A stretch of DNA of 64,000 nucleotides from the NCBI GenBank assembly GCA_026988355.1, contig JALSLK010000091.1:1-64000 (forward strand), given 5' to 3'. Below are positions 13,399 through 63,324 of the stretch, in pieces. Within the stretch, counting starts at the first letter, position 1. The number at the start of each line of letters is the position of its first letter. Source of the DNA: Flavobacteriaceae bacterium (GTDB lineage Bacteria > Bacteroidota > Bacteroidia > Flavobacteriales > Flavobacteriaceae). The notes below the pieces were generated by a model. The model saw only the letters and a program-made list of their open reading frames with translations, searched no databases and was not told the DNA's origin. Position numbers and translations under genes: made by a program.

Positions 13399-13439
13399 AT
13401 ACCAACTCAACATCAAAATACGCTATAAATTATTTATTT
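13399..13439. repeat. Right-end fragment (inverted) of the 160-bp element
   Basis: ATACCAACTCAACATCAAAATACGCTATAAATTATTTATTT is the reverse complement of the right end of copy A. Confidence 0.8.
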
Positions 13440-19816: not shown

Positions 19817-19953
19817 TATTTGTTTTATTATTTTTTAATTCATCTCGATACCAATTTTTTTCGTTATCACTACGAAAAATCACTTAATGAAATGTTTTCT
19901 AAAAATTACTTTTCAACATGCAACATCCTTCTCCCTACAATTTGGGACAATAT

Positions 19954-24826: not shown

Positions 24827-24913
24827 TTTTATATTGTTTTAAGATGTCAAATATATGTATTTTTTTACAATACAAGAGTTACAACGAATTTTTATACGTT
24901 TTATTATATATAT

Positions 24914-25073
24914 ATACCAATTCAATTTCAAAATGCGCTAAATAGATTTGAACTATTTTTATGTTTTACAATCTTGAAATTTCAAGCATAACATAGCTAT
25001 GGTTGAAATTTAAAGTGCTGTAAAACGTGAAATGATAAATAATTTATAGCGTATTTTGATGTTGAGTTGGTAT
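24914..25073. repeat. 160-bp hairpin (MITE-like) element, copy A
   Basis: ATACCAATTCAATTTCAAAATGCGCTA...TAGCGTATTTTGATGTTGAGTTGGTAT; arms imperfectly complementary along most of the length; 6 mismatches by eye versus copy B, same length. Confidence 0.9.
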
Positions 25074-25128
25074 TACTACTTCCAATTCATAAATATTCTC
25101 TATTTTCGTTTACTAATTTATAATAAAA

Positions 25129-28310: not shown

Positions 28311-28403
28311 TACCAAATTTGGTATAAAATAACACACAATATTTTAGATTAGCGATAAGGAGTTTTCTCTTTATCGCTTTTCTTTTTTGACATATTTTCT
28401 CTA

Positions 28404-28563
28404 ATACCAATTCAATTTCAAAATGCGCTAAAGAGATTTGAACTATTTTTATGTTTTACAATCTTGAAATTTCAAGTATAACATAGCTATGGTTTAAATT
28501 TAAAGTGCAGTAAAACGTGAAATGACAAATAATTTATAGCGTATTTTGATGTGGAGTTGGTAT
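28404..28563. repeat. 160-bp hairpin (MITE-like) element, copy B
   Basis: Same element as 24914..25073, same orientation and length. Confidence 0.9.
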
Positions 28564-28677
28564 AAATAATAAAATGGCAGTGTTCACTATTGTGTGTCTG
28601 GTTCATCTTAAAGATTAATATAGAACTTGTATTATTTTTTTATAATTAAATGACTGTTAAGTATTTATGTTATCTCA

Positions 28678-28708
<31 letters not shown>

Positions 28709-28800
28709 TATCGCATATAATAATGCTGCAATTACCAATTGCCAAAGTGGTCTTTCTTTTTCGGTAATTATTAACCTGAGTTCGACCTAAACTTACCTAT

Positions 28801-29179: not shown

Positions 29180-29252
29180 ATACCTAGTTGACATCAAAAC
29201 AAGCCAAAAAATATGTTGATTTTTTTGTTTCATCTTAAAATCAAATTGGTAT
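29180..29252. repeat. Short relative of the ATACC...GGTAT repeat family
   Basis: ATACCTAGTTGACATCAAAACAAGCC...CATCTTAAAATCAAATTGGTAT; shares ends with 61120..61262. Confidence 0.65.
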
Positions 29253-61119: not shown

Positions 61120-61262
61120 ATACCAAGTTGACATCAAAATAAGCTATAAACTCTTTATCTTTTCTCATGCTACTTTACTTAAAATTATATAATAAAAATT
61201 TAAGATGGTATACTTTAAAAAAATATGTTTTTTTTTGGTTCCTCTTAAAATCTAATTGTATA
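61120..61262. repeat. Longer relative of the 29180 element
   Basis: ATACCAAGTTGACATCAAAATAAGCTATAAA...ATATGTTTTTTTTTGGTTCCTCTTAAAATCTAATTGTATA. Confidence 0.62.
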
Positions 61263-63186: not shown

Positions 63187-63236
63187 ACATAATTATTTTT
63201 ATTGTTATTCTTTAAACATGTCATTTCGATAGAGTT

Positions 63237-63283
63237 ATACCAATTCAATTTCAAAATGCGCTAAATAGATTTGAAATATTTTT
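63237..63283. repeat. Left-end fragment of the 160-bp element
   Basis: ATACCAATTCAATTTCAAAATGCGCTAAATAGATTTGAAATATTTTTA. Confidence 0.8.
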
Positions 63284-63324
63284 AAGGCTACCGAAATGAC
63301 AAAATTGCTTTAATTATTCTTTTA

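What the first reader, a model, noticed from the sequence alone, without database searches (positions are those of the whole stretch)
24914..25073. 160-bp near-palindromic mobile or regulatory element, two full copies about 3.5 kb apart
Copies at 24914-25073 and 28404-28563 have identical length and differ at six positions by eye. Termini are imperfect inverted repeats (ATACCAAtTCAAttTCAAAATgCGCTA versus ATACCAAcTCAAcaTCAAAATaCGCTA). Inner segments also pair (GTTTTACA/TGTAAAAC; CTTGAAATTTCAAGCATA against the complement of TATGGTTGAAATTTAAAG), so the transcript could fold end to end. Neither copy lies in a gene and neither has an obvious target-site duplication. This fits a non-autonomous MITE or REP-like element, or a structured intergenic RNA.
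Basis: seen in the sequence. Interest (0 to 1): 0.75.

Follow-up and report, generated by a model that had tools for sequence, protein, structure and literature searches.

The report
Hairpin MITE family with TNA duplications
The two 160-base repeats belong to a family of about a hundred or more short, gene-less jumping DNA pieces that have multiplied in this bacterium's genome; each folds into one long hairpin, copies three bases of its target on insertion, and has relatives with the same hairpin in other genera, but the enzyme that moves it was not found.

Summary
Confirmed, and larger than reported. Both 160-bp copies are real (96% identical, no gaps, end-to-end fold z = -10.8). The host genome (3.14 Mb draft) holds at least 40 near-full-length copies and 269 end motifs (reversed-pattern control: 1), against 0 or 1 exact hits in each of 399 other genomes of the family. 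Two-ended copies are flanked by a 3-bp target-site duplication: 49 of 62 identical (shuffled mean 24, maximum 37), T at -2 in 61/62 and A at +2 in 60/62, so the target is TNA, mostly TTA or TAA. Empty sites confirm insertion: an orthologous one upstream of uvrB in a congener, and paralogous ones inside other repeats and a gene paralogue. Internal-deletion forms (52, 62 and 74 bp) keep both ends. This is a MITE; RAYT/REP and local-duplication readings are not supported. Beyond the usual, elements of 157-161 bp with the same ends, inner stem and apex occur in three genera of two families of the order; the whole hairpin covaries (25 of 53 pairs with compensatory changes) and folds better on one strand. 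That polarity is mostly ancestral, so RNA-level selection is not shown. No partner transposase was found in the families searched. New member of a known kind.

The parts
24914..25073 (+). MITE copy 1, full length (160 bp as called; 158 bp TACCAA..TTGGTA between target-site duplications)
   Evidence: model R1 148.6 bits; orthologous empty site in congener G005 upstream of uvrB
24912..24914 (.). left target-site duplication of copy 1 (ATA, one base changed from TTA)
25073..25075 (.). right target-site duplication of copy 1 (TTA)
24914..24940 (+). left terminal inverted repeat (L end, ATACCAATTCAATTTCAAAATGCGCTA)
25047..25073 (-). right terminal inverted repeat (R end, ATACCAACTCAACATCAAAATACGCTA on the minus strand)
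24957..25031 (+). inner stem with apex GCATA..TATGG, paired in the fold and covarying across genera
28404..28563 (+). MITE copy 2, full length
   Evidence: 140.4 bits
28402..28404 (.). left target-site duplication of copy 2 (TAA)
28563..28565 (.). right target-site duplication of copy 2 (TAA)
29180..29252 (-). 73-bp internal-deletion member of a related subfamily (ends ATACCTAGTTGACATCAAAA / ATACCAATTTGATTTTAAGATG), TSD TTA/TTA
   Evidence: 44.0 bits, E 6.5e-6
61120..61261 (-). diverged, old member of the related subfamily; right boundary uncertain (61212 or 61261)
   Evidence: 37.8 bits, E 9.6e-5
13399..13437 (-). solo R end, 39 bp, remainder deleted
63237..63284 (+). solo L end, 48 bp, lying between the arms of a GTCATTTCGATAG/CTACCGAAATGAC palindrome

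Best explanation
The 160-bp repeat is a non-autonomous DNA transposon (MITE). Its two about 27-bp ends are recognised by a transposase supplied in trans, and the element is inserted at TNA sites (TTA or TAA preferred) with a staggered cut that duplicates 3 bp. The body between the ends carries no gene; it forms, with the ends, a single long imperfect hairpin whose layout (about 160 bp, outer stem, internal loop, inner stem, GCATAGC..GCTATGG apex) has been kept across genera. The family burst in this species: most copies are a few percent from their consensus. Copies then decay by internal deletion, either to 52/62/74-bp elements that keep both ends or to solo ends broken near the foot of the inner stem. 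Shown: dispersal, ends, TSD, empty sites, deletion forms, burst, cross-genus fold conservation. Inferred: movement in trans by a DDE-type enzyme making 3-bp duplications (IS5-like or PIF/Harbinger-like target habit), and repeated transposition of the short forms.
For: At least 40 near-full-length copies and 269 end motifs versus a control of 1 in the host genome; exact motif 137 in the host versus one hit in each of two of 399 other genomes of the family. TSD: 48/61 identical, nearly all TTA or TAA, some TCA/TGA; 49/62 with permutation mean 24.2, maximum 37, none of 10,000 reaching it; T at -2 61/62, A at +2 60/62. Paralogous empty sites: copies inside another copy's end (TGA), inside another dispersed repeat (TTA), in a gene paralogue (TAA), in a 31-bp repeat (TAA). 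Orthologous empty site of window copy 1 in congener G005. Deletion forms 52, 62 and 74 bp with both ends and TSDs. Low divergence of 38 full copies, 1-16 differences and mostly under 8. Insertion between genes: 85 of 87 clusters.
Against: No autonomous element with these ends was found. PF01609 in the host finds only IS4-like pieces and one decayed fragment without matching ends; PF13586, PF12762 and PF13612 find nothing in the host. No element longer than 400 bp with matching ends and an ORF was seen in 0.79 Mb sampled. Strict conservation of the non-terminal body across genera is more than a passive deletion derivative needs.
Confidence: 0.9

Rival explanations
1. The hairpin is a functional structure of one strand, as transcript (3' UTR stabiliser, RNase site, terminator-like) or as single-stranded DNA in transposition, that is kept by selection while the element moves as a MITE.
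For: Covariation over the whole hairpin across three genera: 90.9% of cells paired versus 78.0 +/- 1.1 shuffled, 69 double-change cells versus 25.8 +/- 3.6, slid versions 3-22. Plus strand folds better than minus in 15 of 16 cross-genus members and 37 of 38 own copies; consensus energy -34.8 versus -10.4. Enriched between convergent genes, 36/85 versus 19% of gap bases. Slight excess oriented with the gene reading into it: 23 v 14 tandem, 29 v 14 convergent, post hoc.
Against: In a strand-neutral register, lineage-private G.T columns equal A.C columns (9 v 8); the polarity lies in 5 shared, ancestral columns. Palindromes can gain paired changes neutrally by template switching. No Rfam family above threshold. 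No expression data.
Confidence: 0.2
2. REP/REPIN-like element moved by a RAYT (Y1) transposase.
For: Palindromic, intergenic, high copy number.
Against: Clean 3-bp target duplication with empty sites; 160-bp unit with long terminal inverted repeats. Y1 transposase was not searched for.
Confidence: 0.03
3. Local tandem or segmental duplication of one intergenic stretch.
For: Two copies 3.5 kb apart share subfamily differences from the consensus.
Against: Flanks unrelated; identity stops at the element borders; dozens of copies elsewhere.
Confidence: 0.01

Closest known systems
ERIC elements (Enterobacteriaceae, Vibrionaceae)
   Same: Orphan palindromic MITE of 100-200 bp, conserved between genera, very variable copy number (30 to 711, PMC10969869), mostly intergenic, foldable end to end.
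   Different: Different taxon (no sequence comparison was made); target here is TNA with 3 bp duplicated, ERIC is reported with TA (own knowledge).
RUP and BOX of Streptococcus pneumoniae
   Same: Tightly folded elements with the inverted repeats paired as part of the duplex; proliferated in one species and sparse in relatives (PMC3049150).
   Different: RUP has a proposed IS630 partner and TA duplication (own knowledge); none found here.
MITECca01 of Cardinium (Bacteroidota)
   Same: Lineage-specific burst (169 copies), mostly intergenic, ends without transposase gene (PMC9769881).
   Different: MITECca01 shares ends with resident IS982; here no IS982-type transposase (PF13612) in the host and the body is conserved across genera.
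IS5-group / PIF-Harbinger transposons and their Tourist MITEs
   Same: 3-bp duplication of a T-N-A or TWA target (PIF/Harbinger 3 bp, PMC2213677 abstract; TNA for IS5 groups from own knowledge).
   Different: No transposase of that kind linked; terminal sequence TACCAA not matched to a known element.

Membership tests
MITE (prokaryotic) | short, no coding capacity | tested here: met
   52-161 bp; no ORF of 100 aa overlaps
MITE (prokaryotic) | terminal inverted repeats | tested here: met
   27-bp ends paired, 269 end matches
MITE (prokaryotic) | target-site duplication | tested here: met
   TNA, 49/62 identical, permutation maximum 37; empty sites
MITE (prokaryotic) | many dispersed copies | tested here: met
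MITE (prokaryotic) | ends shared with an autonomous element | tested here: inconclusive
   none found in the families searched; rve, DDE_3, IS110, IS256 and Y1 families not searched; draft assembly may lack multi-copy IS
REP / REPIN-RAYT | 20-40 bp palindrome unit, no target duplication | tested here: not met
   160-bp unit, 3-bp duplication
REP / REPIN-RAYT | RAYT gene in genome | not tested
IS5-like / PIF-Harbinger-like derivative | 3-bp TNA/TWA target duplication | tested here: met
IS5-like / PIF-Harbinger-like derivative | IS5-like transposase with the same ends | tested here: inconclusive
   PF13586 none, PF01609 only unlinked pieces; DDE_Tnp_4 not searched
ERIC | TA target duplication | tested here: not met
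   TNA, 3 bp; definition from own knowledge
Structured RNA family | covarying secondary structure | tested here: met
   neutral palindrome correction not excluded
Structured RNA family | match to a known Rfam family | tested here: not met
   nothing above gathering
Structured RNA family | transcription of one strand | not testable with these tools
   no expression data

The most novel reading that the evidence does not exclude
An order-wide family of MITEs whose complete 160-bp hairpin, not only its ends, is held by selection as a single-stranded structure of fixed polarity (RNA, or ssDNA during transposition), moved by a transposase not yet known with TNA target choice.
Probability: 0.2. Interest if true: 0.65.

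Novelty: new member of a known kind. Interest (0 to 1): 0.4.

Why it matters
It adds a well-defined MITE family (ends, target, empty sites, age classes) to Flavobacteriales; no description of it turned up in the literature searches made here. It offers a case where an orphan MITE keeps its whole body across genera. Finding the enzyme would show what mobilises it, and the copies near gene ends are natural tests of how a hairpin insertion affects expression.

Tried and rejected
Local duplication: rejected (unrelated flanks, many copies). REP/RAYT: rejected on duplications. Autonomous partner: PF01609, PF13586, PF12762 and PF13612 searched; the IS4-like pieces have no TACCAA ends next to them, and the decayed fragment on C111 lies beside two short MITE pieces but is not flanked by matching ends. 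Plasmid and phage collections: no match. Viral-contig scan failed twice. Order-wide search with the covariance model failed and used the last search. RNA-level selection from strand polarity: raw counts favoured it (GT 44 v AC 9 cells) but lineage-private columns did not (9 v 8), so it was downgraded. Solo ends abutting stop codons: looked striking by eye, but only 10 of 64 truncated ends (a set that still held some two-ended short forms) had a facing stop within 15 bp (2% at random positions, coding included), so kept as a side note. Orthologous comparison for the window's solo ends was uninformative: gene order differs at 63237 and no congener match spanned 13399.

Full report
What was checked. 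The two copies are as described: 160 bp each, six differences, no gaps. The plus strand of copy 1 folds end to end with -62.8 kcal/mol, z -10.8 against dinucleotide shuffles. Copy 1 lies between a 51-codon minus-strand ORF and uvrB (NCBIfam equivalog), copy 2 between convergent ORFs, the left one carrying a T9SS sorting domain.

Dispersal. A search of the host assembly (3.14 Mb, 123 contigs, 94% complete) gave 51 matches, about 40 of them near full length at 90-100% identity; only 40 of 276 first-look candidates were scored, so this is a lower bound. The 26-bp end motif with up to 3 mismatches occurs 138 times forward and 131 times reverse, against 1 for the reversed-pattern control. Congeners have 0-8 such ends. 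Among 400 genomes of the family the exact motif occurs 137 times in the host and once in each of two others. The family has burst in this species. Thirty-eight full copies differ from their consensus at 1-16 positions, mostly fewer than 8.

Insertion signature. In 0.79 Mb sampled (stretches chosen around ends, so enriched for them), two-ended copies are flanked by identical trinucleotides in 48 of 61 cases, 45 of them TTA or TAA and three TCA or TGA. With copy 2 added the count is 49/62, against a permutation mean of 24.2 and maximum of 37 in 10,000; T at -2 in 61/62 and A at +2 in 60/62; left and right middle bases agree in 51/62 while other registers give 12-30. Flanks show weak mirror-symmetric preferences (A-rich near -9 to -12, T-rich near +9 to +12).

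Empty sites. Joining flanks with one TNA gives uninterrupted matches elsewhere in the host genome: a copy sits inside the end of another copy (TGA), one inside a different dispersed repeat (TTA; empty copies on three other stretches including window 19853-19915), one in a paralogous gene (TAA), one in a 31-bp repeat (TAA). For the window's own copy 1, congener G005 has the same uvrB upstream region at 84% identity without the 160 bp.

Decay. Lengths run from 52 to 161 bp, with recurrent 62-, 52- and 74-bp forms that keep both ends and duplications. About thirty solo ends remain, each with a TNA outside; 24 of 31 break 34-57 nt from the end, at the internal loop and foot of the inner stem. This fits deletion starting at the inner hairpin, which is inferred. 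In sampled loci 85 of 87 clusters are intergenic; 36 of 85 lie between convergent genes, which hold 19% of gap bases, consistent with selection against promoter damage.

Relatives. Elements of 157-161 bp with the same termini occur in congeners, in another genus of the family (G021) and in a genus of a second family of the order (G038, G053); the G038, G021 and G053 full-length ones are flanked by identical TNA duplications. Eleven were aligned (mean column identity 76%). RNAalifold predicts 53 pairs, 25 with compensatory change. Observed pairing and covariation exceed every one of 500 shuffles and all slid controls, and the inner helices, outside the terminal repeats, contribute most: 8 of 11 and 6 of 13 pairs change on both sides. 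So the body, not only the ends, has been kept as a hairpin. The shuffle control does not remove relatedness, and palindromes can be corrected by template switching, so selection is likely but not proven.

Strand polarity. The plus strand folds better in 15 of 16 cross-genus members and 37 of 38 own copies; consensus energies are -34.8 and -10.4. In a strand-neutral Watson-Crick register there are 44 G.T against 9 A.C cells, but the excess sits in five columns shared between genera; lineage-private columns are 9 against 8. Polarity is therefore an old feature, for instance of unequal left and right ends (ATTTC versus ACATC in most members), and RNA-level selection is not demonstrated. Orientation relative to the gene reading into the element is mildly biased (23 v 14 tandem, 29 v 14 convergent), a post hoc count.

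Partner. No transposase with these ends was found. PF01609 gives IS4-like pieces and one decayed fragment; PF13586, PF12762 and PF13612 give none in the host. Other transposase families were not searched before the cap. Multi-copy IS often drop out of such draft assemblies, and several contigs end inside copies of this element. Plasmid and phage collections gave no match.

Verdict. A MITE family: new member of a known kind, comparable to ERIC, RUP/BOX and MITECca01 (PMC10969869, PMC3049150, PMC9769881), notable for TNA targets, a species-level burst and a hairpin body conserved between genera. The open points are the enzyme and whether the hairpin acts as RNA.

Noticed in passing
window 28311-28326: 16-bp perfect palindrome ATACCAAATTTGGTAT flanked by TAA on both sides, about 80 bp from copy 2; may be a minimal remnant of the same element or chance.
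   Followed up: no
window 19853-19915: Member of another dispersed repeat (TCGAGYGATTTTTTGTAG.GATAACGAAG-like) into which one copy of the MITE inserted elsewhere (L088); further members on L102 and L123.
   Followed up: partly
window 63215-63305: Palindrome GTCATTTCGATAG..CTACCGAAATGAC holding the 48-bp solo MITE end.
   Followed up: no
window 28760-28800 and many element flanks: Recurrent motif AACCTGAGTTCGA near MITE copies, perhaps another interspersed repeat.
   Followed up: no
window 28680-28707: (AAT)n microsatellite about 120 bp from copy 2.
   Followed up: no
L061/L056 (G053 contig 160): 351-bp element with the same ends and apex and an internal insertion, with a second copy of its left part 1.4 kb away.
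   Followed up: partly
L134 1400-1720: Decayed transposase-like fragment (weak DDE_Tnp_1) next to two MITE pieces, not flanked by matching ends.
   Followed up: partly
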